Shown here: one piece after another, positions 417-56,784 of the stretch
Numbering within the stretch: position 1 is the first letter of the stretch
How the letters are laid out: each line of letters starts with the position of its first letter
NCBI GenBank assembly: GCA_037903355.1
Contig: JBAJFE010000025.1
Span: 372,001-436,000, forward strand
Length of the DNA: 64,000 nucleotides
Source of the DNA: Trichuris trichiura
Lineage: Eukaryota; Nematoda; Enoplea; Trichinellida; Trichuridae
Direction: 5' to 3'
The notes under the pieces: model-generated
What the model was told of the DNA's origin: nothing
Database searches by the model: none
The model's input: the letters and a program-made list of their open reading frames with translations, nothing else
Made by a program: the position numbers and the translations under genes

Positions 417-520
417 AAGTGAGCTTTAGTCTTGAAAATGTGGTTTCTTCGTACGAGACCGTATGTTTTCACAATGCAAAAGCTTTATTATGGAATAATT
501 CCCGTTTAATGCGTGTTAAC

Positions 521-560
521 TCCGGAGCTTTCGGGTCGACCGGGACCCGTCTTCAGAGGT
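521..560 (-). ncRNA. hammerhead-ribozyme-like motif
   Basis: On the minus strand it reads CTGAAGA, C, GGGTC...GACCC, GAAA, GCTC, CGG. Core positions match the hammerhead consensus, but the helix I partner upstream is AACCT, so pairing with CGGAG is weakened. It is probably the decayed partner of the plus-strand copy in the other arm. Confidence 0.5.
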
Positions 561-610
561 TGTGAATTATGGATAGGTTGTGAATTATGATTGGTTGTGA
601 ATAATTCACA

Positions 611-653
611 ACCGCTGAAGACGGGTCTCGGTCGACCCGAAAGCTCCGGAGTT
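611..653 (+). ncRNA. hammerhead-ribozyme-like motif
   Basis: CTGAAGA (615-621) is followed by a helix II of GGGTC (623-627) with GACCC (634-638), GAAA (639-642) and GCTC (643-646). CGG (647-649) then pairs with CCG (612-614) as helix I, and further pairing of CAA with TTG is possible across a bulge. The predicted cleavage is after C646. An unpaired C follows the CTGAAGA core, as in most copies here. Ribozyme activity is inferred from consensus only. Confidence 0.65.
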
Positions 654-847
654 AACACGCATTAAACGGGAATTATTCCGTAATAAAGCTTTTGCATTAT
701 GAAAGTGAGCTTTAGTAGAAAATTTATCCGTTCACTCCCCCAGAGCGTAGCTTAGAAAATGTATCTGCAACGCTTACTCACAAACCAGATCTCTAAAATT
801 TTCACTTCGTTTCGTTAAAAATTATTAATAGAACTAACACATTAATA

Positions 848-1151
848 TTTCGAAAGACTGGGTGTCTTTTAACAGGCTTTGGTTGTTTCATAGTTGTTCT
901 TCTGGTTCACGGGTTTGGCCTGTTTGATGTTTTTTTCCAACTCCCCAACACTGCTGACGACAGAACAAGAGCAGTTCCGAAACGTACGGTATAGAAATTG
1001 TTCTGTATTTTCTCTTACAATTTGCTCATCCATTCATTGGTAGGGCACTTTGAAGTTTACTTGCAGATACATCCAACAGGCCAAACCCGTGAACCAGAAG
1101 ATCAACTATGGAACAACCAAAGCCTGCTAAAAGACACCCAGTCTTTCGAAA
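848..1151. mobile_element. A-family hairpin element, copy 1
   Basis: The ends are inverted repeats beginning TTTCGAAAGACTGGGTGTC and including the family signature GGTTCACGGGTTTGGCC / GGCCAAACCCGTGAACC. The left arm lacks the stretch with ACTTCAAAGTGCCCTACC that the right arm keeps, so the left arm has an internal deletion. One hammerhead-like motif sits at the inner edge of the arms (950-990). No clear target duplication was found. The same family recurs at 11.1, 28.95, 41.0, 44.3 and 56.4 kb. Confidence 0.75.
950..990 (+). ncRNA. hammerhead-ribozyme-like motif (A family)
   Basis: Helix I strand ACTG (950-953) is followed by CTGACGA (954-960), helix II AGAAC...GTTCC, GAAA (979-982), CGTA (983-986) and CGGT (987-990). 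ACTG and CGGT pair with one G-U. One base of helix II has changed (AGAAC where other copies have GGAAC). The two-base palindrome ACGT replaces a looped helix III. Confidence 0.6.
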
Positions 1152-3110
1152 CTTTGGCTCCTTCGCCAATCCACATAAGTAAATGCTTTTACAACCACAA
1201 CGGTATGGTCGATAGCAATTAAAAAAAATAGATATGTCAAGTAGCATTTCTTTGTTCGCATCTGCGCTGAAGACTATAAAGGGGAACATGCAATCTCCGC
1301 ATTGTTAAGAGCATAGTCCGTTTCCAAAACATTTTTAAATACTGGACAGCGACTGACTAGCAGCTATTTGCATTACTTGAAAAAGTACTCAAACTTCAAT
1401 AAGGCGTTTTAAACAGCCAAAATACCAACATCCTTAAATGAAAATGCAACATTTTGAAAAGCCTGCATAACTTTTCGTCCAAAAATAAAGTAAGAATTTA
1501 CGTTTAAAAAGTTTCTCGAAAAAACTTCTGTTGCATTGCTTCCTAGGCTCAGTAACTTTTCTGTGCCGATGGCGGACAAATTTTTTCACTTTTAATTGCC
1601 CAAATTCAGGCGTATGCTTCCTGATGTCACTGCTCACATAAAGCATGTGATATTGAAAATAGCATGAGACATTTAATGGTAAACATTATGTTTAATTCGG
1701 TGGTCATGAAGGTTTCACATGTTTCTCTGTCAGGCAGATCCTAAGATCTGCAACACTCCACTAACCACTCTACTCCATCTCGCATAGTTTCCCTGTTTGT
1801 TATGCATGCGAACAAAACCAAAATAGAATTTTTAAAGCTCTCTTGAAATTCCATAATTTCTTCACGAAAAATTTGAAACAGCTTTCTCTTGAAAGCTCTG
1901 TTCGTCATAATTTGCAAAAGCCACTCATCCAGTAAAGAAAGTATGAAATTTCGAGGCACCGTTTCAAAATAGAAGATTTCAGGCGTCCAAACAAAATACC
2001 CTCATGAGCATAATTCTGTCAGGTACACTTTTATTATCACAAGTTTAAAAGCCTTCTTCGCAATAAGGTTTTGGCATCAACATTTCGAATCATTCTACAT
2101 GCATTTGTGGTTGTTTCTGAGTAATAGAACGACGCGTCCATCGAACCATACAATACGGAAACAATTCTGTCAAATATCCTATTTAACAGTGCTTCCCGCT
2201 CATCAGCTCTAGCATATTAAGAAGGATGCATAAGGTAGAACGTTTTTGGCAATCACGGTCCCAGTCTTTCCCGAAGTGTTTGCGTATTTCAACATTCCTG
2301 AAAGTCATAAGTGCCGTTTTGCTAAGTATAACTGCGGGAAAGCATAACTTTTGCCACCATTCGCAGGAAGCGATTTTTGAACGTGTATAACTTCCTTTTG
2401 GCCAGTTAAAGTTGAGAATAACAACAGATCTTCTAACGCGTTATCTGGAGGAAAAGAGAGCCGGCGATACTACTAATGGTGGCAGTGTAGCTCTTACGCG
2501 ACTGGCTAATAGTAACAGTTAGCCTAATACGCGTAAACTTGCTTTGCTGCAAAATGCCTAAGTTGCTTAAAGTACACTTTGAAGCCGTGACTTCAAATCT
2601 CTTTCCAAAGCTACCATTGGAACATTCGACACTTGCGCCACTACAAACGATTCCTAGCCAAGCAAAGATCAAAACGCACGTTTCCCAACAATGCCGTATC
2701 GATTATGAACAGCCTCAATCTGTTTACTCTCATTTGAACGTCTTTGTTTGTTTGGATGGAAAGAGAAGTGCTTATTGGCTGGCTCGTTGGTCGGTCATGT
2801 GAAGGAAAACCGGTTTTCACCTTCTAACTTGAAAAAAGTCAGACAAACCGGTTGCTTGGTGAACAGAAACTGATCCTGCCACACTTAATCTAGCGTAATT
2901 TCCCTCCCTCCCTCTGTTCTCTGCCAAGACATTAGAAGTGTGCTCCCTTCATTGGTATCGTTCTTTGGTTCCAGGTTTAGTTTCTAAATTTACGCTTTAC
3001 CACGTATTTTCTTTGTCCGATTCGTTTTGACAGAATAATGCCTTTCCAAGTTTTCGCACGTGCAAGTATTGCCACTCTCCACATTATTCGAATTGAAGGT
3101 CATTTTTTTG
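1152..3110. other. no gene recognised
   Basis: About 2 kb between an A-family element and the cytidine deaminase gene. I see no coding motif, splice-linked frame, or RNA gene. Promoter elements of the deaminase gene should lie in the last few hundred bases, but none can be pinned down by eye. Confidence 0.4.
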
Positions 3111-3113
3111 CAG
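3101..3113 (+). promoter_or_regulatory. probable trans-splice acceptor
   Basis: A pyrimidine-rich tract ending in TTTTTTTGCAG lies 22 bases upstream of the deaminase start codon. In a nematode this is the expected position of a spliced-leader acceptor. A 5'-UTR intron is the alternative. Confidence 0.45.
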
Positions 3114-3135
3114 TTCCCTTTGACGCAGTAGAACA

Positions 3136-3540
3136 ATGAATGCTGACGATCTGCTTTCCCGTTTGATTACCTCTGCTGTTAAAGCGAAGGAACACTCGTA
3201 TTCGCCGTACAGCAAATTTAGAGTTGGTGCCGCCGTTCTCTGTCAGGACGACACTATCGCGACCGGCTGCAACATAGAGAATTGCTCTTATGGTGTTGGT
3301 GTTTGTGCCGAACAAGTGGCTATTGCCAAAGCGGTGTCCGATGGTCATACACGATTCAAAGCGATTGCCGTCAGTACCGACTGTCCCACGGTGAAAACAC
3401 CGTGCGGACGATGTCGACAGTTTCTCATAGAGTTTGGCGACATGGATTTGTACCTTGCCAACAAAGATGGTTCCACCACGCAAAAAATGACGATCGAATC
3501 ATTGCTTCCTCGAGCATTTACTCCCCGCGATCTTAATTAA
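3136..3540 (+). CDS. cda: cytidine deaminase
   Basis: An intronless 134-residue protein of normal length for the homotetrameric, zinc-dependent cytidine deaminases. These enzymes convert cytidine and deoxycytidine to uridine and deoxyuridine in pyrimidine salvage and act in the cytosol. Visible motifs are SPYSKFRVGAA near residue 24 (substrate side), NIENCSYGVGVCAEQ near residues 46-60 with the CAE catalytic segment (zinc-binding Cys and proton-shuttling Glu), and PCGRCRQ near residues 89-95, which supplies the other two zinc cysteines. The start is chosen because the first ATG after a strong AG acceptor gives exactly the family's N terminus. An AATAAA lies 174 bases after the stop. No neighbouring gene is close enough to suggest an operon. 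Lack of introns is unusual beside the other genes here, so retroposition or transfer is possible. Confidence 0.95.
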   Translation: MNADDLLSRLITSAVKAKEHSYSPYSKFRVGAAVLCQDDTIATGCNIENCSYGVGVCAEQVAIAKAVSDGHTRFKAIAVSTDCPTVKTPCGRCRQFLIEFGDMDLYLANKDGSTTQKMTIESLLPRAFTPRDLN

Positions 3541-3713
3541 ATTATTTATTGCCTTTCAACGCATCATGAAAAAGTAAAGGTCGCGCGACTTGCACCAGTA
3601 AACCGCCTTACCACTTATTTGCTCTAAAGGAGACTGTCAGTATTTCTTAAACTATAAGTAGCATCTCCTACTGGGGCTGAATTAAGTCTCAATCCGCTGT
3701 GAGATAAACATTC

Positions 3714-3719
3714 AATAAA
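3714..3719 (+). terminator. polyadenylation signal of the deaminase gene
   Basis: A canonical AATAAA lies 174 bases downstream of the stop codon, on the sense strand. Confidence 0.5.
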
Positions 3720-5669
3720 TTAATGTTACAGCTATTATTTCTGCACCTTTAAAGCATAAATATTACAGCAGTGACTTCGCAGGTGCTTTCAAGTAGCTGA
3801 GTAGATTGAGAAATAGTAAATATTGACACGGCTATGTCGGCTTAACCTCAACTGCTTCATGTACTAACAATCATAACGTCGATCTGAAGGGATATATGCA
3901 GCACACGGAGCTGTTCACTTACACAAATCCCCATCGTACATATCCGTTTAGCTCTGATGCAAAGTTGTACAAACAACGTTAAGCCGCTTCGTGGAAACAA
4001 AAACTTATTCAAGAAGCGGTAAACCCAGAGCAGTTAAACAACAAACACGCTTTGAAGTCGCCTCAATTAAATGGGTAATCGCAAAAATAAGCTACACAAA
4101 TCCTCAGCTTTATCCACTCCTAACCTAAGAACAGCAATTAGTATAATCAGTACTACTCCCGCGAAACCATAATCGAGTATTTACTTTAAGTGTTAAAAGC
4201 CACAATTATTTCTGCTCGTTATGGCTTTTCAACTCTTACGTCCCACAGTTCTGAGAGGAAGCCCTTTTACCAAAAGCTTTGAAGGAGATAAGAAGAGGCT
4301 GGGACAAAGAACAATGACACTGTATAGGGTACGGCCATCGAGCTCCCATTTTAAAACTTTGAATCAGACTTTTCTTACGTAAAAAATAGTGCAGGTTGTT
4401 TTCAGGGCAACGCTTATTTAATAAAGGTAAATGAATGACGCAAACAAAGCAGGTACACAGTGACAAAGCAACAATGTGCTCCTAAAACTTCTCCGTCGCG
4501 CAAATGCAGGCATAATACTCTAATCTGTACGGTTAGGTGCCAATAAACTGCCGACAGCCACTAATGACAGAAGGTAGCACTATTTCGAAGAAGTAAAATC
4601 ATACCGACCCATTCCAATGGTTACATTCAAACAAACAAGATAGCGTAATAAAAAACAGGCGTGAGAAATAAACAAATGAATTATTACGCTCATAAATCTT
4701 CTGCCTTTTATGATAATACAACAAACGGACGAAGTTGTTGAAAGAATGAACACAACAATTGTTCATTTCCTTCAAACCAAACATTTTTAAAGTCGAAAAA
4801 CCCACTAGTGCTCTAAAACCGGGTTGAACGTTCGAATAGTTGATAGTTACTGTTCATACGAGTACGTTACGCGCATTCTCAAGCTCCATTTAAGAAAAAA
4901 AGTATTTTTCATCGCGAACAATAATACAATGGGTTTTTAACTCCTCCATAGCTCACTAACCCAAACATTGTGTATTATAAGACGCTGCTGCTTTGAGTAC
5001 GTCATACGCACACACTTTCCCACGTCACGCGCGCAAGTGTATCCAGCTGTCAAAGTCACGCTGTTAACCTCTCTTCTAACGCGCGCTAGCCACTGCACAA
5101 TGGCATGAGACAATCAGGTTGCTCATCTACTTTTTGAATAATTATAAGTCAAGATCACATCGTCTACAGTAGTCTCTGTCTCGTTCTCCTAAATACCTTT
5201 ACTCCACCTGGCATCGTGTACTTCAAAAACGATTACGGTTACCTTGATGCCAAGAGACATTAAGGCACAACATCTAAGCAGCAATGTATCAAATTCATTC
5301 AATGCACAACTTTCAAAGTTTTCAAAAAATTATCTGATTCTCTTATTATTGAAGCTTGTTCATTTGCAGTTTTTTTCTTTAATGCACGCAGTCGTTTGAC
5401 GGATAAATCACTTGGCTGAAAGGTCGTTTTTCTCGAACGGGTGAAAATTCACAGAGTAAAACGATGAATTGGCCAAAATTCCGAATGCGTTAGAACGCTC
5501 ATTAGGTTGAAGGCTGCATAGAACGAAATGCTGAGCGGGCTTAAAGATGCAGGAAAAATTGCACTGTCCTTCCATTTCTTGCTGCGTGCTTACAGTGCGC
5601 TGTGTTCGGCTGTTTTCTTCCTGTGCGATAGGTGCCGCTCCGTAGGCGGTTTACTGTAAACCCCTGCGC
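3720..5669. other. no gene recognised
   Basis: About 1.9 kb of AT-rich sequence with no recognisable coding frame, RNA gene or repeat unit. It ends at the left edge of the large inverted repeat. Confidence 0.4.
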
Positions 5670-6692
5670 CTAAACAGCAAATTTCATCCAAGGAACATGG
5701 AATTTATTTTTCTTTAGAGCAAGTACAAGCCCATCTCCGTATCCGCTACTGATAGCCGTTGAAAGTACGCGTTAAGTTCCTAATCGGAAATTCCGATATC
5801 TCACCTTGAGGACGGCAATCTTGTATATGTGAACAGTCTCACGGATAGAATCGTATGACTTCAACTGTGTCGTACTATACATAGCACGATGAGATCATGT
5901 GCTCTCCTGTCTCGTTCCGCGTGAATAGCTTGTTTTTTCATCTAACTTATTCGTACAATTCATGCTGGATATCCGTTAATCACTTAATAATTACTTTTGT
6001 TATTTGATCGAATGGTCTTGTATACTATAGAACCTGTATTGATGGCATATTCGAACTACTATCAAGATAGGTTTTTCTCATTGACGGCATTATCAAATTG
6101 AATTGGGGTTACTTAAGAACAATTCAGTGCATCCAATCGCTGTCACTGTTGAGTGATAAGGGAACGCAAGATAATAATCACGGCTCGATGATACCGCGAA
6201 TGCATCCTTAGAAAGTCAGTAGGAACCTAAGAAGTCAGAGTACCCGCGTCGCTCAGTTCAGTTTGATTAGTCGCGTGTACAGTAGGCTATCATCATGAGA
6301 AGTTGCGTAACTTTTATGATAAAGTGCCTCATTGTAATTGTTTTGTTCTATTATTGAAATACACGAGCTTCTACTACTGCGATCAATTATTCCGGTTTAT
6401 TTCAAACTGTATCTTGCTTATGACCGCGTAGGCAAGTAAAGAAATAAGATATTGCACATGTTGATAAAGTTACTCCACGCAAATACGGCAAACGACTTCT
6501 GTTACTGAATGAAGCTTTAAGAGAACATTATCTCTACTGCTATTTGTGAACATTGGGTGTCATATTTAACGGTATTTTCATCCCGCTTTTCAGTTTATGA
6601 CTTTTCCTGTTTTTTCATGAATGCATATAATTGAAATGCATCAACGAATGAATTGGCAAATTTTCAAAAAAAATACAGGAACAAATGTTTTG

Positions 6693-6726
6693 CATGTTCC
6701 GCAGCTGCTCTTGCTCTGTCGTTGGA
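6693..6726 (-). ncRNA. decayed A-family hammerhead-like motif
   Basis: GTTCCGCAGCTGCTCTTGCTC is the reverse complement of a degenerate A-family core and mirrors 7325-7362 in the other arm. Core bases are lost, so it is a fossil only. Confidence 0.35.
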
Positions 6727-6842
6727 GATAGAAAGTACGTGTTCAGAGAGGAGTTTATATAGGACTATGTGAGCAATTGGCGTGACTGGGTTAATAAGGT
6801 GAAACATTCATCTTCAACAATACAGTTCAGTTTTGGTAAGTC

Positions 6843-7178
6843 TTCTACGGCTTTTCTCTTTTTTTGTTCGTGTTGGTGCCTGTAATTAAACGAAGAACTG
6901 CTCTACTAGCGGACAGATGAGCGATTGTTAGGAAATTGTACAGAACCAATACACTCAACTTTAAAACTGACGACAGAACTATAGCGTTCTGAAAGCTCTG
7001 AAATAAAGTTGAGTGCATTGGTTCTGTACGATTTTCCTAATAATTGCTCATCCATCCCTTGGTGGAGCAATTGTTTCATTTAATTACAGATACTAACTAA
7101 CGCAGACAAAAAGCGCGAAAGGCCGTAGAAGACCTACCAAAACCATGAAACATTATCCCGTTACGAAGCATCCTGTGT
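6843..7178. mobile_element. B-family hairpin element at the centre of the giant inverted repeat
   Basis: Inverted arms run from CTTCTACGGCTTTTC (left) to the matching region ending about 7130 (right). A one-sided tail follows on the right (CATGAAACATTATCCCGTTACGAAGCATC). A second copy of this family lies at 55857-56150. The centre is a hammerhead-like motif whose helix I is a 26-base arm. The tail recalls the A-family tail (CTATGAAACAACC...CCTGTTA), so the two families share one design. Confidence 0.7.
6938..7029 (+). ncRNA. hammerhead-ribozyme-like motif with very long helix I
   Basis: The core CTGACGA (6967-6973) is followed by helix II AGAAC (6975-6979) with GTTCT (6986-6990), GAAA (6991-6994) and GCTC (6995-6998). 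A6966 can pair with T6999; after a small internal loop, 6938-6963 pairs with 7004-7029 at 25 of 26 positions. This gives a type I-like hammerhead with only the two-base palindrome AGCT in place of helix III. The internal loop in helix I is typical of natural type I hammerheads. Activity is inferred. Confidence 0.65.
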
Positions 7179-7362: not shown

Positions 7363-8154
7363 ATTTGTTCCTGTATTTTTTCGAACAATTTGCTAATTTA
7401 TTCACTGATGTACTTCAATTATAAACATTCATAAAAAAACAGGGAAAGCCATAAACTGAAAAGTAGTATGAAAATACCGTTAAAATATGACACTCAATGT
7501 TCATCAATGACAATGGAGATAATATTCTCTAAAACTTTCATTCAGGAATACAGTTCGAGCGCCGTATTTGCGGAGAGTAACGATATTAACATGTACAATA
7601 CCTTATGTCTTTACTTGCCTACGCGGTCATAAGCAAGATGCAGTTTGAAATAAATCGGAATAATTGATCGCAGTAGTAGAAGCCCATGTATTCCAATAAT
7701 AGAACAAAGCAATTACGATGAGGCATTTTATCATAAAAGTTATGTAATCGTAAACTTCTCCTGATGGTGGCCCACTGTACACGCAGCTAATCGAACTGAA
7801 CTGAGCGACGCGGGTACTCTGACTTCTTAGGTTCCTACTGACTTTCGAATGCTGTATTCGTGGTATGATCCAGCTGTGATTGATGTCTTGCGTTCTTGTA
7901 TTGCTGAAAAGTGACAACGACTGGATGCACTCAATTGTTCTTTATGGCACATTCGAATTAATATCATGATTGGTCTTTCTTGTTGACGCAATTATTAAGT
8001 TAAATTGGGGTTACTTGAATACAAACTCTATGGTATACAAGACTATTCGACCAAATAAAGAAATGTAATTATTTGGAAACATAAATTCTCTTAACGGGTG
8101 TGTGAATTAGCATTGTTGCACAGATCAGCTAGCCGTTCAAAGTTTTATTATAAT

Positions 8155-8195
8155 TGCGAAGCTTTCGGGGAACACCTGTCCCCATCTTCAGCGAA
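8155..8195 (-). ncRNA. hammerhead-ribozyme-like motif
   Basis: On the minus strand it reads CTGAAGA, T, GGGGAC...GTTCCC, then CGAAA, GCTT and CGC. Helix I is reduced to two pairs, and it is the inverted partner of 8210-8250. Confidence 0.5.
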
Positions 8196-8209
8196 TGAAA
8201 AGATTTTCA

Positions 8210-8250
8210 TGCGCTGATGACGGGGACAGGTGTTCCCTGAAAGCTTCGCA
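8210..8250 (+). ncRNA. hammerhead-ribozyme-like motif
   Basis: Helix I TGCG (8210-8213) pairs perfectly with CGCA (8247-8250). Between them are CTGATGA (8214-8220), helix II GGGGAC (8222-8227) with GTTCCC (8232-8237), GAAA (8239-8242) and GCTT (8243-8246). Predicted cleavage is after T8246. This is one of the best preserved copies; its helix I bases differ from other copies while still pairing. Confidence 0.7.
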
Positions 8251-9080
8251 GTTATAATAAAACTTTGAACGGGTAGCTGATCCGTACAACAATGCTAAAA
8301 GTAATTATTAAGTGATTAACGGACATCTAGTGTGTGAACTGTATGAACCAGTCAGATGAAGGAACGAACGATTCACGCGGCGCGAGACAGGAGAGCACAT
8401 GATTTCATCGTGCTACGTATAATACGACACTGTTGAAATCATATGATTCTATCTGTAAAACTTTTCGCATATACGAGATAGTAGCTCTCAAGGTCAGACA
8501 CCGGAACCTCCGATTGGGAGTTTAACGCCTATTTTCAACAGTTATCAATAGCGGATACAGAGAAAAATTTGTATTTGCCTCAAAGAAAAAATGTACTCCA
8601 TGTGCCCTGGATAGAATTTGCTGCTAAAATACAGAAATTAAAACGTGTCGGCTAAATGCCTGCAAGCAGTTAATCTTCAGTCGGATCAGTTTCTGGACGA
8701 AAGTCTGTTCTGTTTATGTGTGGCTTAGAAAACACACAGACTTTTAAAAACTGACTAAACTGCTGCAGAACCATTCCCATTGCTATGGTATTCAAATGTT
8801 TAAAACGAGAAGTTATGTTTTACCTGATTTTTTTCTTAGTAGCAAAAATGCAGATACCCTTCTTTCAAACACTTGGCACATCGAGTTACAACACTGGCTG
8901 GATAAAAGCATAATAGTCCGTATACTTTCAGCGTATATATTTGCGGGGGGGGTTTCCTCTTATGGAGAAAGGTTTACTATTGAAAATATAACTTTTTGGT
9001 ATGGAACCATAGGTTTTCATGTTTGGATTGTTTGTGTGGAACTTGCCCCGTTGGAAATAACTAAACATTTCACTTGTAAG

Positions 9081-9118
9081 CCGTAGCTTTCAGGCCGCGC
9101 GACCCATCTTCAGTGGTA
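9081..9118 (-). ncRNA. hammerhead-ribozyme-like motif, partly decayed
   Basis: The minus strand reads CTGAAGA, TGGGTC..., then CCTGAAAGCTACGG. CTGAAGA and GAAA survive, but helix II is weakened and helix I starts with a C-A mismatch. Confidence 0.4.
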
Positions 9119-9146
9119 CTTAAAATTAATGTCTTTAATTTTCAGT

Positions 9147-9186
9147 ACCGCTGAGGATGGGTCACGCGCAACCCTATAGCTACGGT
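9147..9186 (+). ncRNA. hammerhead-ribozyme-like motif with mutated core
   Basis: Helix I ACCG (9147-9150) pairs with CGGT (9183-9186) and CTGAGGA with TGGGT...ACCC is intact, but GAAA has become TATA (9175-9178). It should be inactive; the retained helix I pairing helps define the fold. Confidence 0.5.
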
Positions 9187-9406
9187 CTCCTATTAAAATT
9201 TTTTGTATTTTGCAATGGGACAAGCTCGGTATAAAAATCCAAAAAGGTTCATTATGTTCACGTCGCTTTCAGACCAGAGCTACGTGAGCATAATAAAACT
9301 TCTTCATTGCCGCAAATATATAATGAAGCTTTTTACAACGTTTAGGATGTTAGGCTGCTTCTTTTACGGAATGCATGTACCGCTGAAAAATTTTAATTCT
9401 AATTTT

Positions 9407-9446
9407 CCCGAAGCTTTCGGGTCAAACGCGACCCGTCTTCAACGGG
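9407..9446 (-). ncRNA. hammerhead-like motif with core C to T change
   Basis: Same sequence as its inverted partner except that the invariant first core C is T, which should abolish cleavage. Confidence 0.5.
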
Positions 9447-9469
9447 CTTAAATTGAACATCAATTTAAG

Positions 9470-9509
9470 CCCGCTGAAGACGGGTCGCGTTTGACCCGAA
9501 AGCTTCGGG
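9470..9509 (+). ncRNA. hammerhead-ribozyme-like motif
   Basis: Helix I CCCG (9470-9473) pairs with CGGG (9506-9509). The core CTGAAGA (9474-9480), helix II GGGTC (9482-9486) with GACCC (9493-9497), GAAA (9498-9501) and GCTT (9502-9505) are intact. Predicted cleavage is after T9505. Confidence 0.7.
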
Positions 9510-9521
9510 AAAATTAGAATT

Positions 9522-11075
9522 ATATTACGTTCCTACCGTTTCAGCAAATGGCCACACAAGCCGCAACACTTCTTATGTTTTTCGTCAGGATTTAATAGAG
9601 TGGATGTGAAACATCATTTCATTTAAACTTCTAATAAGCACAGACTTACTCTTAACGGACATGTAAGTACTCATTTTCACTCGTCTCTCTTCCTTTCAAT
9701 AGGACAGGCGTTTGCCCTTTAGAAATATAAAAAGTAGCACTTGTTAGTCCGCGCATATTTGACGAAACAAAAGTACTTCTCAAATTTTTTATGGCATATG
9801 CTCTAGTTTTGTACGAACTTTGTCACTGTTTTTCTCATAAATATTAGCAATCGCTAAAACATACGCCCACAGTGGCGATTATTTACCAACGTTTTCGTAA
9901 CTTTCGATTGCAGAGGAAGTGATTCATGAAAGTATTTTTTAAAAGAAGTCACTGTTGAACATGGAAGGTAAACTAGAAACATAATATTCAATATGGTACA
10001 CATTGGAAACGAGTATGTTGTGTGAAAAAAGGCAGGTCAGGATTGCTCAAAAAACTTTGCTAGCCTCGTTTCTCCAATATCAAACAACACTGTCAATAAT
10101 GACTTGCCACAATTCTGCTGTAAAAGACAGAACTGCACGCCCTCTGCGTACAGCCAAATTAAGAGAACCAATGTGAATAAATACTGGAGTCAATATTGAC
10201 GACACAACATGGACTAATAAAAGCTCACTATACGATTCACCATACTCCGAAAGCACAAGAAAAAAATTTTCTATTTACAAGAGCTACGCAAGAGAATACT
10301 TATACAACTTTCACGCATGGGCACCTATTCCAACGAGGGCATACAAGAAGTACACATTTCAAAACGCCTTTCGTACACAACCTATGGTCAGGCCAAGAAA
10401 GCGCTTGAAATTTGTTTTTCATATTTTTTTAGCTTAAGATTGCAACACTCTTTGACAGGAAACAGGAAGCACTAATGCAATCATTGCCTTCCGTCATTCG
10501 ACGAACAATAATGGCAGTAAACAATGCGCAGGCTTGAGCAGAAAAAAAGTGCACTGAATAAATGCGCCCATCTTAAGCGAGACCGTTAAGAACATTCTAC
10601 CCAAATAATCCCAACGCTTAAATAAAAGTGAAAGCGTAAACGATACTTGGCATAGCATTTTTGGGTTTCTCACGCATTTCTAGTGCTGAAAAGCATTGGT
10701 AAGTTAAATAAGATACACAAATATGAGAAAAGGCATTAAATTAATCGTCGCACAAATTGTAAGTTCTATTTTGGGAAAGAGGAAGTATGCAGTCATGAAA
10801 AAAATTGAAGACAAAAACTGACTTAAGCAAGTTGTCTACCGTTTTGACTCAGCAGGAAGATGTCACCTATTACAGACTGAGGAAATAACCATAAATGGTA
10901 GCACTGTTAAGTTCCTACCAGGTAAGACTGGCTAGAGTACCTTTTGAGCTCAGGTAGTTTTTATCTATGGTGAAAGCTTAATAAGGAGGACGATTTCACA
11001 ACAATTTCATACGAATAATTGAATTTAGATGCTCTACACTTTAAGAAGCTGCCTTACTTGAAACAATGGCTTAAC
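9522..11075. other. no gene recognised
   Basis: AT-rich DNA without a recognisable gene. Short frames (for example 10196-10408) have no motif and no splice context. Confidence 0.4.
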
Positions 11076-11418
11076 GCAAGAAAAGACGGTCTTCTGGTTC
11101 ACGGGTTTGGCCTGTTTGATGCATCTGTAAGTAAACTTCAAAGTGCCCTGCCCTACCAACGAATGGATGAACAAATTGCAAATTGAAAAATTTGGTTCCC
11201 TCACACTGCTGACGACGGAACAAGAGCAGTTCTGAAATGTACGGTATTCAAATTGTTCTGTATTTTCTCTAACAATTTGCTCATCCATTCGTTGATAGGG
11301 CACTTTGAAGTTTACTTACAGATACATCAAACAGGCCAAACCCGTGAACCAAAAGATCAACTACGAAACAACCTAAGCCTGTTAAAAGACATCCTGTCTT
11401 TTAACAGCAAGAAAAGAC
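11076..11418. mobile_element. A-family hairpin element, copy 2, with 12-bp TSD
   Basis: GCAAGAAAAGAC at 11076-11087 and 11407-11418 flanks the element (11088-11406). It starts inside the family sequence at GGTCTTCTGGTTCACGGG, whereas copy 1 starts about 50 bases further out, so the 5' end is truncated. The 3' end stops at the usual point (...AGACATCCTGTCTTT). Both arms carry ACTTCAAAGTGCCC, and a hammerhead-like motif lies at 11205-11245. Confidence 0.85.
11205..11245 (+). ncRNA. hammerhead-ribozyme-like motif (A family)
   Basis: ACTG (11205-11208), CTGACGA (11209-11215), helix II GGAAC with GTTCT, GAAA (11234-11237), TGTA and CGGT (11242-11245). Helix I and helix II each contain a G-U pair. 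The helix III palindrome ACGT is changed to ATGT. Confidence 0.55.
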
Positions 11419-41018: not shown

Positions 41019-41180
41019 TGGTCATCTAGTTCACGGGTTTGGCCTGTTTGATGTATCTGTAAATAAACTTCAAAATGTACTACTAAAGAATGGATGAGCA
41101 AATTGTTAGAGAAAATACAGAAGAATTTCTATACCGCACGTTTCGGAACTGTTCTTGTTCCGTCGTCAGCGGTGTAAGGG
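41019..41180. mobile_element. half copy of an A-family element
   Basis: It runs from GTTGGTCATCTAGTTCACGG through CTGTTTGATGTATCTG and GGATGAGCAAATTG to the ribozyme motif, then stops. Only one arm is present, ending at the hammerhead-like sequence. Confidence 0.7.
41133..41173 (-). ncRNA. hammerhead-ribozyme-like motif with changed cleavage base
   Basis: On the minus strand helix I ACCG pairs with CGGT, and CTGACGA, GGAAC/GTTCC and GAAAC are intact. The base at the cleavage site is G (CGTG), which is not permitted by the NUH rule, so cleavage is probably lost. Confidence 0.5.
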
Positions 41181-44330: not shown

Positions 44331-44611
44331 CTTCAGAGAATTTCATAGTTGGTCTTCTGGTTCACTGGTTTGGACTGTTTTATTTATCTATAAGTAAACT
44401 TCAAAGTGCCTTACCAACAAATGGATGAGCAAATTGTTAGAAAAAATTGTTCTGTAATTTCTCTAACAATTTGCTCATCCATTTGTTGGTAGGGCACTTT
44501 GAAGTTTACTTACAGATACATCAAACAGGCCAAACCAGTGAACCAGAAGACCAACTGTGAAACAACCGAAGCCTGTTAAAAGACCCCCCGTCTTTCGAAA
44601 CTTCAGAGAAT
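44331..44611. mobile_element. A-family hairpin element inside the BEL/Pao element, 11-bp TSD
   Basis: CTTCAGAGAAT at 44331-44341 and 44601-44611 flanks the 259-bp element (44342-44600). Arms carry GTTCACTGGTTTGG and CCAAACCAGTGAACC. The centre has lost the hammerhead-like motif, joining directly through AAAAATTGTTCTG. The left end starts at TTCATAGTTGG, inside the family sequence, while the right end is full length (...CCCCGTCTTTCGAAA). Confidence 0.9.
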
Positions 44612-45323
44612 TATAGTATCTCTGCTACACGATGAGCAATGAAAGAGCGCGTTCTATCTGGTACGTGCAACCAGTGAAGTACTGTTGTTGAATCAGTCCA
44701 GTACACAGTATGATCTACGGACAGACCTATTTCTTGTTTTATAGTATCAACCAGACGCACGGCCACGACTGCTGCCTGTAGTTCAAGCCACGGAATCGTC
44801 AGCGGACGTCGTGAGACGATACGTGTCTTCACCAAGAGGAAAAAACGCTAACAGTTCGGCTGGTACTAACGGTCCTCAAGTATACAACAGCTCCAACGGC
44901 TGTCTCAGACGCATCAGAGAACGAATGTAGTTCGATCCTCGCAACTTCACTTGGAAGTAAGAACAATCTTGATATTAACAGAGAACTAGTTGAACTAATT
45001 TTGGACGACCAATGCTGAAATTGTTGCGAGAATTTCTTATCCAAATCTTTATCCCAATCAGTATTTAGGCAGGTAGTTTCTCGCATGAGCAATTTGGCTG
45101 TCACTATCGCAGGAGCCAGGAAACCAAGCGGATCATAAAGACTCCCGATTGCGCTTAGCATCTGTCGTTTTGTCTTTACGGTTCTACTGTCAATGTGAGA
45201 CGCAAAACGAAATGGGTTTGATCGTTGACTCCATAGTAAACCAAGGACATTATCAAGCGGTATGTCGCTCAGTCTTAAGTTGACAATGCCGTCTGAACGA
45301 TCAGTCACTGCGAAATGTTCCAA
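44611..45323 (-). pseudogene. BEL/Pao RNase H region
   Basis: 45323-44829 contains LYDPLGFLAPAIVTAKLLMR and RIELHSFSDASETAVGAVVY (RNase H start with its first catalytic Asp). After a frame change, 44835-44611 continues with PWLELQAAVVA and YWTDSTTVLHW, then stops at the hairpin element insertion. The order matches BEL/Pao polyproteins. Confidence 0.85.
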
Positions 45324-48634: not shown

Positions 48635-49456
48635 GTTCTTCAAACCGAAAAAGGCATTTACCTGAAACATGCTTGATTTCGTTTCTTTTTCCCTTCTTAA
48701 TGATTTGAAGAGGAATTTTCTTTCCGTCCAAACGAATTGCCAGAATGCAGGTGATGCGCGTACTTTCAGAACAAGTAGGAGTGCGGATTAACGAAGATCC
48801 CCTACGGTCAATTGTTGTTTGAAATCTTTGACACATAAATATTGCAGTTTCATCCATAGCAATCATGTGGGACAGTCGGTATTTAGAAAAATCGATTCTG
48901 TCAGCAAAGGACTCGAATGTAAATGAACGTTTAATAACTTCAGTATCTTCAAGCTTGAACAACGTTGTCAACTCCTTAGTGACAGTTCATGTCGCTGAAG
49001 AAAGCTATCCAGCCAGTGCTGTGACGCTTTGAATTTTTCTGTGGATATCTCTAACTGTGATGCCGTCGCAAGGGCAAATTCCTGAATATCAGACCTGCGC
49101 ACGATGAAAGCCTGTGCTCTCCTGTCAGCAATCCATTTATAAATGATGTTCTCAAGCTCGGGAAATAATGGTTGCCGACCTGATCCACATTTCCGCTTCT
49201 TTGCATTTCCCTTGTCCATCTTTTCACAGAGTTTATCGTACTGTGCTCGCCATTTTCGAACCATTCGGTGATCGAGCTTTTTCTCTTTGCAAAAAGCCGT
49301 CAGATTCTTGCCTTGAGAGTCCTCCACGATTGCTTTCTTGTACTCGACGCTATAACTCTTCCTTGTTGCAGGCATCATGCCTGAGAGTGAAAACATTATT
49401 CGCTTTCGCAAACAAAATTGCACTTCTGCACCAACCTGTCGCACACAAAAGTGCAA
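48635..49456 (-). pseudogene. pogo/Tigger-like transposase, N-terminal part
   Basis: Translation begins near MPATRKSYSVEYKKAIVEDS, a helix-turn-helix of the pogo/CENP-B type with KKLDHRMVRKWRAQYDKL. A second DNA-binding segment follows (WIADRRAQAFIVRRSDIQE, FKASQHWLDSFLQRHELSLR). A one-base frameshift near 48970 leads into TTLFKLEDTEVIKR and HMIAMDETAIFMC, which holds the first catalytic Asp. The frame ends at the retrotransposon. The rest is at 41716-42298. Confidence 0.87.
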
Positions 49457-49749: not shown

Positions 49750-49751
49750 TA

Positions 49752-51529: not shown

Positions 51530-52792
51530 CTAATGAGTATGATAGTCATGGGGATACTGTATGCAGCCGAGAGTAAAGCCGAGCTCTGTGAGAGGATCAA
51601 TTTCCAAATGCGTTGTAGTTCTATCACACAACGAATCAATTATTTGGAAGCGATTTGACACCGTAACTCACTTAGTTACGTCCTTCTTACGCATTGCAAT
51701 TCGTACGGTGTTCCGTTCATTGACATCCAAGTACTCAATGAAACCTGTAGTGAAAAAGTGATCAAAAACTCTTTCACCTCTTGCCACTTCATCCATATGC
51801 TTTTTTTCGATCCTTGGTTGCCCATGTTCAATTAAAACATAAGGCCTTGAAAGGGTAAAGTAGTTGAATGGGAAAATACTAAAACGCAGAATTAAAAAAT
51901 CTCGTTACTTGCAAACACGACCAGCTTCGGTGGAAAAGTAGACGCAGCGATGGGGCTCGTGCAGGAATGCGCTAACAAACTTATGAAGGCAACCATATTG
52001 ACGAAAGAAACGAATATCTTCAACAATTTCTTTTGGTCTCAGAGTGGCACCAACGACGTCACCATTCACTAGCACGTAGTAATAGCCATTTTTCAACAAC
52101 TCGTGGCTTTTAAAAAGGAGCACGTCCTCGACACCCAAATCGAACAACGTCGCCACTAGTTTCTTCGCGTCACCTTCCGATGAGATGCAAGTCGAAAGAG
52201 CAATACTACTGCCTACCTTACAAGGCTAAATGAACTTCATAGAAGCGCATAGCATAAAAACACTATCTACCTCCCCTTTCGGAGCATTGCCAGGGCAAAC
52301 CGTTTTCCAACACGAAGATTGAAAAGAACCTGAACAGTCCACTTTTCTGCTCCATTCATACTGCGAAGAAAAATTAGTAAGACTTGAAGAAGCTATTCTA
52401 ACAGTCAAACTTGAGTAGTCATTCTTCTCATCGAGTCAAATGCAGAAGCGTAGGACAAAGATGACACCACTCGCGTCACCCCGCGACGATCCAAACTGTA
52501 CCGTTGTACGGACCAATTTCCCTAAGTATGCATCGTTAAAGTGTAATAACTTGAAAATGCAACTCGGCTGAACGCTCATAATAGCAGTTTCTAATCAGAA
52601 ATGGATTTTCAGATGAAATCCACCGATTAGTCAAAAACAAAAAAAATACAGGTGTGTGGTCTTTAACGGGTTTGGTTGTCATAGAAGAGATGTACATGGA
52701 TTTTTCCCGTTTTGCATCTGCCCATAAAACGAGTCAAAAATTGAAAAAAACTTTAATGTCATTCAAGGGCATAAAAACCAAACAAAAGTCTG

Positions 52793-52830
52793 GCGAAGCT
52801 TTCAGCTCAATCTTGAGCCGTCATCAGCGC
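52793..52830 (-). ncRNA. hammerhead-ribozyme-like motif
   Basis: The minus strand reads GCG, CTGATGA, CGGCTCA...TGAGC, TGAAA, GCTT, CGC. Helix I is GCG with CGC; core and helix II are intact. Confidence 0.6.
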
Positions 52831-53157
52831 ACGCAGGAGTTGCCCTCCCGCCGAGTTTTTCCTCAGGAGTGGCCCCTCCACCTTTCCGAGTCGTGTGCGT
52901 GCCTGTCTAGTCGAACCTTGACCTGTCGAGGCTATACACACACGACTGGATCAGCTTCGGAGCAACTTCCTTACAGGCTGTCCTCGGCGGAGGCACAACG
53001 CGCAATCTAGCCTGTAAGAAAGTTGCTCCGAAGCTGATCCAGTCGTGTGTGTCTAGCCTCGACAGGTCAAGGTCCAACTAGACAGGCACGCACACGACTC
53101 GGAAAGGTGGAGGGGCCACTCCTGAGGAAAAACTCGGCGGGAGGGCAACTCCTGCGT

Positions 53158-53195
53158 GCGCTGATGACGGCTCAAGATTGAGCGGAAAGCTTCGC
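53158..53195 (+). ncRNA. hammerhead-ribozyme-like motif
   Basis: GCG (53158-53160), CTGATGA (53161-53167), helix II GCTCA with TGAGC, GAAA (53185-53188), GCTT and CGC (53193-53195). Mirror copy of 52793-52830; they differ by one base before GAAA. Confidence 0.6.
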
Positions 53196-54762
53196 CAGAC
53201 TTTTGTTTGGTTTTTATGCCCTTGAATGACATTAAAGTTTTTTTCAATTTTTGACTCGTTTTATGGGCAGATGCAAAACGGGAAAAATCCATGTACATCT
53301 CTTCTTCTAAAAACAAAAAAAAACTTTTAAAGGCTCAGTCACCTACCGTAGCAATAGCCATTGTCAAACCGGAAGTGATTGTTTTTTTAGGGATACACTC
53401 TGCAATGTCGAACTTAGTAGTTTTCTCTTCTTTTAACATGTTCTTATCAACGATTGTTGACAGCTGACAAAAATAGATAGAATTATGAAGAGATTTGTTG
53501 ACGCTGGATATTCACCTCCTTATTTAAACGTCTAAATAAATCTTCGAAAAGAACTGCGATCAGAGGACCAGCCAGTTCAAGTTGCTTGTTGCCATAAAAG
53601 TCGGGATCGTCATACGAGCACTGACCACTTTCAGCTTGAATTATTCTTTGTACCATCAAACCCACATAAACTGCCTTCCGACGCATATCACTTCGACTTG
53701 ACTTAAGCAAAACAATCCAAATATGGAACGATCAGATGAGTCTCGCACCGAAACATGACAGAAGGCAACTTTGTCTAAGAAATCCAACGCTTCCTCTTTC
53801 TTATCTACTTCACCATCATTCTTCAGCTGAATGTACTTCTTAGTGCGGGCGCCTATGTAGCGCAGCGCCTAAAGGCGACATTGATTGAAACGATGAAACG
53901 GAAAAGGTTGAAAATAATTCCTCTACACTATTTTGACTTTTGATCTTAAGATCTGCGCATTCAAAGAATGAACCGACGTATGGTTCAACGTATGCTTCTT
54001 GAGTTCCCATTAGGTAGGCAATTTCTTGATTGCACTCTATGCCCATTGCTCGAAACACTATGCAAAGTGGAATGTCCTGGAAAAAGGGAATGAAAAAAAG
54101 CCCGCCTGCTGATTTCTGTTCACCTCGGACAGCTTATTATGTCGTACATAAAACTTGCCATTTTTGTGCACAACTTTTGACTTACCTCGACCGCAATATG
54201 TCACGCTAGAAAAGGCAATTCATATTATTGAACATGGGGTGCTTCCTAACGCGATTGTCCTTCACTTTGGTAAAGGTCGACCACAGCTTGGCAGAAGAAA
54301 GGATGTGAAGTCTCTACTTACCTCAGAACTCCGCAAAATACTTCATCTGACGAATTCTGGAGAACAAACATACGGTTTCTTGACTGTTCTTCCTGGGGAA
54401 AAATCATTCTTTCCATTCCTCCAATAATGAAATAACCTCCCGGATCGAGATGGCATTCTTTCATGCTCCCCAGTTCTTCAGCCGACTTGCCGGTCAATAC
54501 ACAACGATTACTGCGCAACATTATTGGTAGTCTAAAGCGAAAAAAGTTAAATGAAATTAACTGACCGCACAACTGCTTTGCCCATAACCTTCCAATAGGT
54601 AGATCAATGCGTCGAACTACCTCGTTACCTCTCGTGTATTCAATGTCTACTACTACAGGCGCCGAATATGTTTTATTTTGCAGTCTGCATTCGTGCGGTG
54701 TAATAGAACAGTTATCTAAGCCATTATTCATGCCGGCATATCCCACACGTACATCAAGATAC

Positions 54763-55856
54763 CTGAACAAAAAACGATATTTTCTTGAGCAAATTATTGA
54801 GCAAAATAAAAGAAAGTTGGCGAGAAAGTGATACATAATATAATACAAAAATATGTCCAGTAAAAGGTAACCAGACTCAATAGAGACCATTTGTTAACTA
54901 ATATGAAATCTTTTGGATGAATTTTACGAACTATTAGCGCGTAAATGCGTCGTTTAAGCGTATACCTTTATAAAGAATGGAATGAAATATTACAGTAGGC
55001 AAACTGCATAACAACAGAATGCAACAAAGCAAACCAACTACAAGCCAATAATATTTGGCGGGTTGGTTAAACGAAAGAAAATCACATAACAACCCGAAAT
55101 TGGAATTCCTGCGATATGCCTTTATATTTTATTCATATAGGGTAAGCTATTTTTATTAAATTTTTTAAACCTCATCCCATCAACAATATCGAACGTAATT
55201 ATCAAAGAGATGTGCTACTTATAGCCTACTGCATAGTAACAGTTTAAACGTAGGGGATCGGCGAGTTGTAAAGCAAATTCCTATTTCCGCGAGATAATCA
55301 CCGACTATCGTTGGTAGTTACCTCCTTGGAAATACGAATTTCATTGTCACTTACATTCGACGTGAATAAAATGAGACATTTCAAAAGGCTGTTACAGAAA
55401 GCATATTTTCAGTAATACGCTTTTTATTGGAGAAACCTGTGGTACACTGTAACATTGACTAAATGAACATATGAAATGTTTAACGTTGTACAATAACGCG
55501 AAAAAGTAACCTGCAAAATGGAGGTTACTTTTTCGCAGCTGCGAATCGTGGACGTCGAGCAAAATTAAACCCTCTTGTTGCCAAGGAAAAGGCACTGCAT
55601 ACCTCGGGCAGTGGCAAAACATATCGTTCAATGCAACAAGGCAGTTAATGCGAAAATCTTATGTTATGAAACTAATTTACCATTACGAAAGATTAAAAAA
55701 GCGGTCTGCATTCGACGCAACGTCAAGTACAACTAAGACCTAGGGGAAGATGTACACATGATATGGTCACACTTGATTGATTCGACAAAATGCTGTACTC
55801 TTTCCAAAATTGGACTTTTAATAATAGCATTAGATTGTCACAAAGAAAAATGAACA
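54763..55856. other. no gene recognised
   Basis: The N-terminal exons of the polymerase gene would be expected here on the minus strand, but no matching sequence is recognised. Nothing else is identified. Confidence 0.4.
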
Positions 55857-56150
55857 GTTTTCTAGATCTTCTACGGCTTTTCCCGTTCTCATCTGCTTTG
55901 GTATCTGTAATTCAAACGAAACAAATGCTCTACCAGCGGGTAGGTGAGCTCCAACGCTCTAGTTCCGAAAGCTCTGAAAAATAAAGTTGAGTGTATTGGT
56001 CCTGTTCATTTTTTTCCTAATAATCGCTCATCCACCCGCTGGTAGAGCAATTGTTTCGTTTGAATTACAGATACCAAGCAGATAAGAACGGGAAAAGCCG
56101 TAAAGGATCTAGAAAACTATGAAACATCATCCTGTTACGAAGCATCTAAT
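55857..56150. mobile_element. B-family hairpin element, copy 2
   Basis: Arms start GTTTTCTAGATCTTCTACGG and end GGATCTAGAAAAC, followed by the one-sided tail TATGAAACATCATCCTGTTA and ACGAAGCATC, as at 7.1 kb. The centre keeps only the 3' half of a hammerhead-like motif (GTTCCGAAAGCTCTG, near 55960-55975). Target duplication not identified. Confidence 0.75.
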
Positions 56151-56313
56151 TTTTAAGAATGAAAAGTAAAAGTTGAATTTTCCTAATGAATTTAAAATAG
56201 AGCAGTTTGGCAACAATTGAATGCACACGACGTTGATAAATCTCTGGATTCACTATGAAACAGAGGAGACGTGTTAGCTAATCGGTGTCACGATTTCACT
56301 CTTTCTTTATTTC

Positions 56314-56355
56314 ACCGCTGAAGACGGGTGACGGAGACAAGCCGAAAGCTTCGGT
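56314..56355 (+). ncRNA. hammerhead-ribozyme-like motif, solitary
   Basis: Helix I ACCG (56314-56317) pairs with CGGT (56352-56355); CTGAAGA, GAAA and GCTT are intact, while helix II (GGGT...AGCC) is weak with a long loop. No second arm is seen around it. Confidence 0.55.
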
Positions 56356-56499
56356 TCAGCTTCTTTTAAATTGAAGAGTGAGTAGGGATCTTTTGATTCA
56401 CGGGTTTGGCTTGTTTGATGTATCTGTAAGTAAACTTCAAAGTGCCCTACCAACGGATGGATGAGCAAATTGTTAGAGAAAATACAGAACACTTTGGAT

Positions 56500-56540
56500 A
56501 CCGTACGTTTCGGAACTGCTCTTGTTCCGTCGTCAGCAGT
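56500..56540 (-). ncRNA. hammerhead-ribozyme-like motif (A family)
   Basis: On the minus strand ACTG, CTGACGA, GGAAC...GTTCC, GAAA, CGTA, CGGT are all intact. Confidence 0.65.
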
Positions 56541-56577
56541 GTGAGGGAGTTATTGAACAGGACCAATACTCGCTCAC

Positions 56578-56618
56578 ACTGCTGACGACGGAATAAGAGC
56601 AGTTCCGAAACGTACGGT
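56578..56618 (+). ncRNA. hammerhead-ribozyme-like motif (A family)
   Basis: ACTG (56578-56581), CTGACGA (56582-56588), GGAAT with GTTCC (one G-U), GAAA (56607-56610), CGTA and CGGT (56615-56618). Inverted partner of 56500-56540. Confidence 0.65.
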
Positions 56619-56784
56619 ATCCAAAGTGTTCTGTATTTTCTCTAACAATTTGCTCATCCATCCGTTGGTAGGGCACTTTGAAGTTAACTTACAGATACAT
56701 CAAACAGGCCAAACTTGTGAATCAGAAGATCAACTATGAAACAACTAAAGCTTGTTAAAAGACACCTAGTCTTTCGAAGAGTGA

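What the first reader, a model, noticed from the sequence alone, without database searches (positions are those of the whole stretch)
417..56784. A dense family of hammerhead-ribozyme-like motifs inside hairpin elements
About nineteen sites share CTGANGA, a short helix II, GAAA, a two-base palindromic helix III and a helix I. Helix I covaries between copies (ACCG/CGGT at 56314 and 41133, CCCG/CGGG at 9470, TGCG/CGCA at 8210, CCG/CGG at 611, ACTG/CGGT in the A family), so base pairing and not sequence is conserved. Most copies have one extra unpaired base (usually C) after the CTGANGA core, a deviation from the textbook helix II junction. Hammerheads are known in Penelope-like elements and retrozymes; the density and the inverted arrangement here look unusual.
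Basis: partly seen in the sequence, partly recalled or inferred. Interest (0 to 1): 0.88.

Follow-up and report, generated by a model that had tools for sequence, protein, structure and literature searches.

The report
Hammerhead-ribozyme leaders of Penelope-like retrotransposons
The hairpins are short copies of the start of a jumping gene's RNA, which carries a hammerhead-ribozyme motif; they are pasted in head-to-head pairs, and their ends record how this little-understood kind of jumping gene inserts itself.

Summary
The motifs are real. A strict descriptor finds 7 intact sites in the window and 0 in 40 shuffles. Genome-wide, one exact pattern has 3,159 matches against 2 for its reversed control. 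Helices I and II covary. Yet no Rfam hammerhead model tested scores above its cut-off.

They lie in leaders (pseudo-LTRs) of Penelope-like retrotransposons (PLEs) in a Trichuris-like nematode genome. Long family A copies run into a reverse transcriptase ORF with a partial GIY-YIG match. In six families the arm ends read as PLE-like ORF starts. The motif lies 13-19 nt from the commonest cDNA 5' end, a probable transcription start.

The inverted arrangement is an insertion signature already described for PLEs: two cDNAs joined head to head, in 33 of 55 pairs with a duplication of 9 bp or more (chance 0.45). In 41 of 42 classifiable pairs one arm has the long 'tail' end, the other the short end, and both arms share a template type. 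Likeliest: a paired enzyme copying one RNA, or RNAs of one locus, from two internal start sites. 0 of 110 arms start at the ribozyme cut site. Cleavage itself is untested.

The parts
417..716 (.). Family B PLE leader insertion: head-to-head arms (about 431-570 and 601-702) inside a 14-bp target-site duplication AAGTGAGCTTTAGT (417-430 and 703-716); left arm with long tail, right arm with short end
612..649 (+). Hammerhead-like motif, family B, intact (extra C at 622)
522..559 (-). Hammerhead-like motif in the inverted arm of family B; helix I broken (CCT against CGG)
848..1151 (.). Family A insertion with long tail on both arms (the one LL case among 42); no TSD found
950..990 (+). Hammerhead-like motif, family A; first helix II pair mutated
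6830..7143 (.). Family G PLE leader with degenerate motif (core at 6967+), followed by ORF start MKHYPVTKHPVF
8065..8309 (.). Family C insertion: arms about 8074-8201 and 8204-8300, candidate 9-bp TSD GTAATTATT (8065-8073, 8301-8309; a second 9-bp candidate was also found); possible ORF start MLIHTPVKRIYV in the left tail; minus-strand motif at 8191 with only 2 bp of helix I
8210..8250 (+). Hammerhead-like motif, family C, intact
9076..9190 (.). Inverted pair with two degenerate motifs (9113-, 9151+); not assigned to a family
9394..9522 (.). Family D head-to-head pair, arms 98% identical; minus-strand copy has lost C3; no TSD found, no ORF start read
9470..9509 (+). Hammerhead-like motif, family D, intact
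11076..11418 (.). Family A insertion inside a 12-bp TSD GCAAGAAAAGAC; motif at 11205-11245+ with mismatched helix III
41133..41173 (-). Family A motif with helix I ACCG/CGGT but G at position 17
44331..44612 (.). Family A insertion truncated before the motif on both arms; 12-bp TSD CTTCAGAGAATT; one short end, one long tail
52636..53322 (.). Family E head-to-head pair, arms 309 bp, A-rich (uncertain) 11-bp TSD; ORF start MTTKPVKDHTPVF in left tail; motifs at 52827- (intact) and 53161+ (helix II base mutated)
55856..56160 (.). Family H PLE leader, degenerate (no CTGANGA), followed by ORF start MKHHPVTKHLIFK; no TSD found
56314..56355 (+). Hammerhead-like motif, family F, single; family membership not traced
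56373..56784. Family A head-to-head pair with a candidate 9-bp TSD GAAGAGTGA (found, not by the finder) and two intact motifs (56536- and 56582+)

Best explanation
The hairpins are insertions of the 5' leader (pseudo-LTR) of several Penelope-like retrotransposon families in a Trichuris-like nematode. In family A the PLE mRNA starts about 30 nt after a TATA box; a minimal hammerhead-type motif with a 2-bp palindromic helix III, able to close only as a dimer, follows 13 nt later (19 nt in family B); then about 120 nt of leader; then the ORF start. The PLE enzyme starts reverse transcription inside the mRNA at one of two sites (at ATGAAA, 'short', or 35-38 nt further, 'tail'), with a cut DNA end as primer, and copies to the mRNA's 5' end. 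Both DNA ends of one staggered cut are extended, one from each site, and the two cDNAs are joined head to head, giving an inverted pair inside a duplication of about 9-14 bp. SHOWN: motif, covariation, ORF of family A, two ends, asymmetry, shared template type, 5'-end clusters, duplications in most pairs. INFERRED: that all families are PLEs, paired enzyme on one RNA, transcription start, dimeric closure, and that the motif cuts at all.
For: Family A copies run upstream into an ORF with RVT_1 (5.7e-12) and a partial GIY-YIG match just under Pfam's cut-off; the 23 best-scoring relatives are Trichuris suis or T. muris proteins, 47-81% identical. L070 holds leader, ORF start MKLFKPVKRHPVFRN and a 3' leader that ends at the short site; by eye a 12-bp TSD AAGACCACAATA flanks it. 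Four of 16 ORF-start loci (L075, L079, L081, L088) carry an upstream leader that spans the motif in direct orientation. Arm ends of families A, B, C, E, G and H read as PLE-like ORF starts (frames picked by eye, weakest for B and C). TATATAA lies 30 nt before the commonest 5' end in all three A reference copies. Of 62 head-to-head junctions of families A and B in held loci, 7 run on into the ORF and were set aside; of the other 55, 42 have both ends classifiable: 41 long/short, 1 long/long, 0 short/short (P = 1e-11 for independent equal choice). TSD of 9 bp or more: 33 of 55 pairs, mean 0.45 of 55 when flanks of different insertions are matched (20 rearrangements); 29 of the 41 long/short pairs have one. 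Arms agree at diagnostic sites: A 27 of 362 discordant against 0.486 for random pairing, B 6 of 148 against 0.427. In vitro precedent: the Anolis PLE extends both DNA strands and starts at two internal sites (PMC11167929, parts 1-2 of 4 read).
Against: 13 of 55 pairs have one end at neither site. 22 of 55 show no duplication of 9 bp or more. Discordance at diagnostic sites in A (0.075) is about twice that at other columns (0.040), and single pairs differ more (L015 3 of 5, L009 2 of 6). The shared template type could also come from gene conversion or from two RNAs of one locus. Loci were chosen as best hits: the A query had two long tails, which works against the result (19 long/short, 1 long/long of A among its loci), but the B query was itself long/short (14 of the 41); the small pattern-chosen set gave 2 long/short of 2 classified. 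[quoted passage not shown] it does not, in the parts read, say which sites pair within one event. Only family A was traced to an ORF. No full-length, unbroken autonomous copy was seen.
Confidence: 0.85

Rival explanations
1. MITE-like DNA transposons whose terminal inverted repeats carry a hammerhead-like sequence by chance.
For: Inverted arms, hairpin potential, short duplications.
Against: Arms end inside an ORF start, end at two different points, are truncated at variable inner points, and the same sequence joins an RT ORF in family A. I did not search for a transposase tied to them.
Confidence: 0.03
2. Self-priming (snap-back) of one cDNA or on an antisense RNA makes the inverted pair, as proposed for A. 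vaga Penelope (PMC3846280, passages).
For: Arms share the template type; palindromes at inverted junctions are described in that paper.
Against: Snap-back should repeat the same outer end on both arms; 41 of 42 pairs have different ends. Either arm can be the shorter by more than 20 nt (L in 5, S in 10 of 41 pairs).
Confidence: 0.12
3. Retrozyme-like route: ribozyme-cut, circular RNAs are the templates, as proposed for animal retrozymes (PMC7229834, passages).
For: One array has three motif copies in direct repeat at 475-bp spacing.
Against: 0 of 110 arms begin at the cut site; 33 of 72 (A) and 28 of 38 (B) begin in an upstream cluster instead. The elements have PLE ends and duplications.
Confidence: 0.05
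4. The motif is a dead relic without ribozyme activity, carried along because the enzyme binds the leader.
For: The extra C can pair with G12 in 15 of 15 aligned sequences; Rfam models score below threshold; templates are uncut.
Against: CTGANGA, GAAA, the palindromic helix III and helix I are kept across families with compensatory changes; 3,159 pattern matches genome-wide, though related copies inflate this count.
Confidence: 0.3

Closest known systems
Minimal type I hammerheads of PLE pseudo-LTRs (Cervera and de la Pena 2014; Lunse, Weinberg and Breaker 2017; neither paper held; described in PMC7761336 and PMC6155905, passages)
   Same: Location in the pseudo-LTR, near-absent helix III, cleavage proposed to need a dimer.
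   Different: Here a pyrimidine is fixed between A9 and helix II in the families seen. Whether those papers include this form I could not check.
Chrysanthemum chlorotic mottle viroid hammerhead with an extra core nucleotide (De la Pena and Flores 2001; title seen in a reference list; viroid and place of the base are recalled)
   Same: One extra base in the core, at the same place if recall is right.
   Different: There an A (recalled); here C or U, which could pair with G12.
Poseidon PLE of Anolis (PAc), PMC11167929 (parts 1-2 of 4 read)
   Same: Both strands extended, two internal start sites that define the tail, hammerhead at the leader, cleavage not needed for insertion.
   Different: There the hammerhead overlaps the ORF start and RT starts about 111-118 bp into the ORF; here (family A) the motif lies about 120 nt upstream and the two sites lie within the first 45 nt of the ORF. 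How the two sites pair within one event was not reported in the parts read.
Penelope families of Adineta vaga, PMC3846280 (passages)
   Same: Inverted pLTRs, head-to-head, tail optional on one of them, TSD 8-10 bp, TATA box.
   Different: The passages read describe mainly element-length copies and do not count tail types; here leader-only pairs are common, so the ends can be counted.

Membership tests
Penelope-like element with endonuclease | PLE-type reverse transcriptase | tested here: met
   Family A only: RVT_1 5.7e-12; nearest relatives are Trichuris RT-domain proteins. That these are of the PLE clade rests on the GIY-YIG match and the anatomy; no tree was built
Penelope-like element with endonuclease | GIY-YIG endonuclease after the RT in one ORF | tested here: inconclusive
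   Same frame in L033, but 21.7 bits against a cut-off of 22.6 and only profile positions 2-33 of 78
Penelope-like element with endonuclease | Direct and inverted pseudo-LTRs with optional tail, TSD | tested here: met
Hammerhead ribozyme (any type) | CUGANGA, GAAA and NUH around three helices | tested here: met
   helix III is only 2 bp without a loop
Hammerhead ribozyme (any type) | Helix II follows A9 directly and G12 is unpaired | tested here: inconclusive
   One extra base in each of the 68 sites; it could pair with G12
Hammerhead ribozyme (any type) | Self-cleavage | not testable with these tools
   No experiment possible
Rfam Hammerhead_1, Hammerhead_HH9, Hammerhead_HH10 | Score above the family cut-off | tested here: not met
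   26.7 of 34, 16.7 of 52 and no match, own genome, best candidates scored; weak hits also appear in 11 of 14 control genomes for the first two
Rfam hammerhead types II and III | Score above the family cut-off | tested here: not met
   Window only: no hammerhead family listed
Animal retrozyme | Direct tandem repeats of 150-450 bp with type I hammerheads, spread through RNA circles | tested here: not met
   Window elements are inverted pairs or singles; one 475-bp array exists elsewhere; circles not testable

The most novel reading that the evidence does not exclude
One RNA, two start sites, two DNA ends: a paired PLE enzyme holds a single RNA and starts one cDNA at the upstream site on one DNA end and a second at the downstream site on the other end, so that a leader insertion is an asymmetric head-to-head pair. 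The leader's ribozyme is held off because the fixed extra pyrimidine pairs with the catalytic G12, and it is released only later, by protein or by a partner ribozyme, so that uncut RNA is used for insertion.
Probability: 0.3. Interest if true: 0.75.

Novelty: new member of a known kind. Interest (0 to 1): 0.52.

Why it matters
How Penelope-like elements insert, and what their hammerheads do, are called open in the papers seen. This genome holds thousands of motif copies, and the leader-only pairs preserve both ends of each event, so competing models (snap-back, two RNAs, one RNA with two start sites; cut or uncut template) can be tested by counting. The counts made here favour uncut RNA and one source per pair, and they disfavour simple snap-back.

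Tried and rejected
MITE reading: rejected on the ORF starts at the arm ends and the RT linkage of family A. MicroRNA precursors: Rfam lists mir-556 and others at 44409-44494 with E below 1e-3, and weaker ones at other arms, all far under the cut-offs; I take these as artefacts of near-perfect inverted arms. Closer-to-partner test on arm distances: 4 of 29 pairs have arms closer to each other than either is to any other insertion; I first read this as different templates, but the nearest of many near-identical copies wins by chance, so I replaced it by the diagnostic-site test, which points to one template type. A peak of 5' ends at the ribozyme cut: looked for and not found; three ORF-linked copies (L070/L074, L086, L088), not among the 110 arms counted, have an inner end about 3-6 nt from it, which I take as ordinary truncation. 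Extra-C/G12 pairing: the shifted register scores almost as well (0.433 against 0.478), because C and G are invariant there; undecided. Purine at the extra position: 57 against 3,159 pyrimidine matches, by eye mostly point changes of pyrimidine copies. ViennaRNA monomer and dimer folds model no tertiary core and settle nothing. No covariance model was built and no tree was made.
Full report
OBSERVATION. CTGANGA occurs 53 times in the window against 27.3 expected. By my reading of the 53 contexts, 16 lie in repeat elements with a helix II and a GAAA-like partner. Seven meet every criterion of a strict descriptor, and 40 Markov shuffles give none. Most sit in inverted repeats.

GENOME. The window is G000:C20:372001-436000 of a 72.7-Mb assembly. 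The pattern CGCTGANGAYN{10,24}GAAANNTHCG has 3,159 exact matches, its reversed control 2; 100 are listed. The family A pattern has 321, control 0; at least one match is in both lists. The window is therefore not special. These counts include related copies and do not measure selection.

STRUCTURE. In 15 hand-picked sequences of different families or subfamilies, 93.3% of cells pair, 22 cells carry changes on both sides (shuffles 6.3), 6 pairs have such a change (shuffles 3.9; 11 of 500 reach 6), and the covariation score is 0.478 against 0.153; slid controls are far lower. Shuffles do not remove relatedness. Helix III is AXYU with XY = GC (12 of 15) or CG (3 of 15): a self-complementary 2-bp helix with no loop, so it can close only between two molecules or two copies (inference; dimeric action is proposed for PLE hammerheads in PMC7761336, passages). 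One extra base follows CTGANGA: of 68 distinct sites in held loci (families A and B dominate), 55 are in the +1 register, 13 in registers shifted by mutated pairs, none in the canonical one; the base is C in 52 and T in 3 of the 55. Of the 68, 5 have a non-palindromic helix III and 3 have G17. Genome-wide the extra base is a pyrimidine in 3,159 and a purine in 57 pattern matches. It could pair with G12. [quoted passage not shown]

RFAM. No hammerhead family at gathering score in the window, none at E up to 10 in the window or in two short stretches with laxer filters. Own genome: RF00163 best 26.7 bits (cut-off 34), RF02275 16.7 (52), RF02277 none.

WHAT THE ELEMENTS ARE. Family A copies that extend upstream run into an ORF with RVT_1 and a partial GIY-YIG match just under the cut-off. 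The 23 best-scoring relatives are Trichuris suis and T. muris proteins (47-81% identity), so the host is a Trichuris-like nematode (inference). L070 contains a leader (5'-truncated about 4 nt before the cut site), an ORF starting MKLFKPVKRHPVFRN in two overlapping frames (a frame break), and a 3' leader that ends at the short site; a 12-bp duplication AAGACCACAATA flanks it by eye. The ORF start has 41 matches in the genome (40 candidates scored), of which 16 loci were fetched: four (L075, L079, L081, L088) have an upstream leader spanning the motif in direct orientation, seven (L076, L080, L081, L084, L086, L088, L089) have an inverted leader directly in front of a direct one, and three (L077, L078, L083) show no leader match. 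Where the window's other families can be read past the arm, they encode MTTKPVKDHTPVFF (E), MKHYPVTKHPVFLG (G), MKHHPVTKHLIFK (H), VKTYGLVRRNHIFK (B) and MLIHTPVKRIYV (C). I judge these related by eye to the family A start (MKLFKPVKRHPVFRN in L070); B and C are weak, and D and F were not read.

LEADER ANATOMY. In all three family A reference copies TATATAA begins 30 nt before CTCCCCAACACTG, the commonest 5' end, and the motif begins 13 nt after it; the ORF start follows about 120 nt after the motif. Of 72 A arms, 33 begin at -17 to -7 relative to CTGANGA, 11 at -6 to +2, 16 beyond the cut site, 8 further upstream, the other 4 in between; of 38 B arms, 28 begin at -20 to -14. None of the 110 begins at the predicted cut site (+30 to +36 in A, +29 to +35 in B). 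The templates were therefore mostly full 5'-end, uncut RNAs. This agrees with PMC11167929 (parts 1-2 of 4), where hammerhead mutants did not affect insertion in vitro.

INSERTION SIGNATURE. In the window and loci L001-L090 I found 62 head-to-head junctions of families A and B. Seven continue into the ORF and were set aside, leaving 55; 13 of these have one end at neither site (11 with a long, 2 with a short partner) and were not classified. Of the remaining 42, 41 have one long and one short end, 1 is long/long, 0 short/short (P = 1e-11 for independent equal choice). Sampling: loci fetched with the family A query, which has two long ends, give 19 long/short and 1 long/long for A; loci of the family B query, itself long/short, give 14 long/short for B; pattern-chosen loci give 2 of 2. 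Duplications of 9 bp or more flank 33 of 55 pairs (29 of the 41 long/short pairs); when left and right flanks of different insertions are matched, the mean is 0.45 of 55 over 20 rearrangements, and none reaches 11 bp against 28 observed. At sites diagnostic of subfamilies the two arms agree: 27 of 362 discordant in A (random pairing 0.486), 6 of 148 in B (0.427); at other columns the rates are 0.040 and 0.032, so A's diagnostic sites differ about twice as often as the rest. Either arm may be the more truncated.

MECHANISM. PMC3846280 (passages) already describes inverted pLTRs, TSDs, an optional tail on one inverted pLTR and head-to-head as the most frequent arrangement, and proposes self-priming. 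PMC11167929 shows in vitro that a PLE cuts and extends both strands from two internal start sites that correspond to the tail; it finds no difference in start site between top and bottom strand, which neither contradicts nor shows a long/short pairing within each event. The counts here fit two separate extensions of one RNA, or of RNAs from one locus, one from each site, better than snap-back, which should give equal ends. Gene conversion between arms could also explain the shared template type. The rigid long/short rule suggests that the two start sites are shared out between two enzyme copies; this is inference.

THE RIBOZYME'S JOB. Unknown. In Anolis the motif cut only when protein was added (PMC11167929). 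Direct copies (leader-ORF-leader loci; the 475-bp array L090) could form dimers in cis. In an inverted pair one transcript holds one sense and one antisense copy, so no cis dimer can form.

NOVELTY. PLE hammerheads, inverted leaders and tails are known; the two primary hammerhead papers were not held. Searches for hammerhead with Trichuris, Trichuris with Penelope, Nematis with Penelope, hammerhead with nematode and retrotransposon and PLE second-strand terms listed no title or abstract on these elements or on the long/short rule. They cover open-licence papers only;'s nine papers I read parts of PMC11167929 and passages of PMC12910113, which has no mention of hammerheads.

Noticed in passing
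window 44829-45323 (-): ORF with Pao retrotransposon peptidase (Peptidase_A17, 5e-27), probably part of a BEL/Pao element.
   Followed up: no
window 48968-49456 (-): ORF with Tc5-type transposase DNA-binding domain.
   Followed up: no
window 54318-54890 (-): ORF matching RNA polymerase beta subunit domain 1 (RNA_pol_Rpb2_1), probably an exon of a cellular gene.
   Followed up: no
L090 1-1151 (G000:C1:2085450-2086600): Three motif copies in direct repeat at 475-bp spacing, resembling a retrozyme array; by eye, the stretch before the first motif is inverted relative to that before the other two.
   Followed up: partly
window 44409-44494: PLE inverted arms match several microRNA families at E below 1e-3 though under the cut-offs; such hairpins could be mis-annotated as microRNA genes.
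   Followed up: no
L072 200-510: Two motif copies 98 bp apart in direct orientation inside one family A insertion, as if the template was copied twice or a jump occurred.
   Followed up: no
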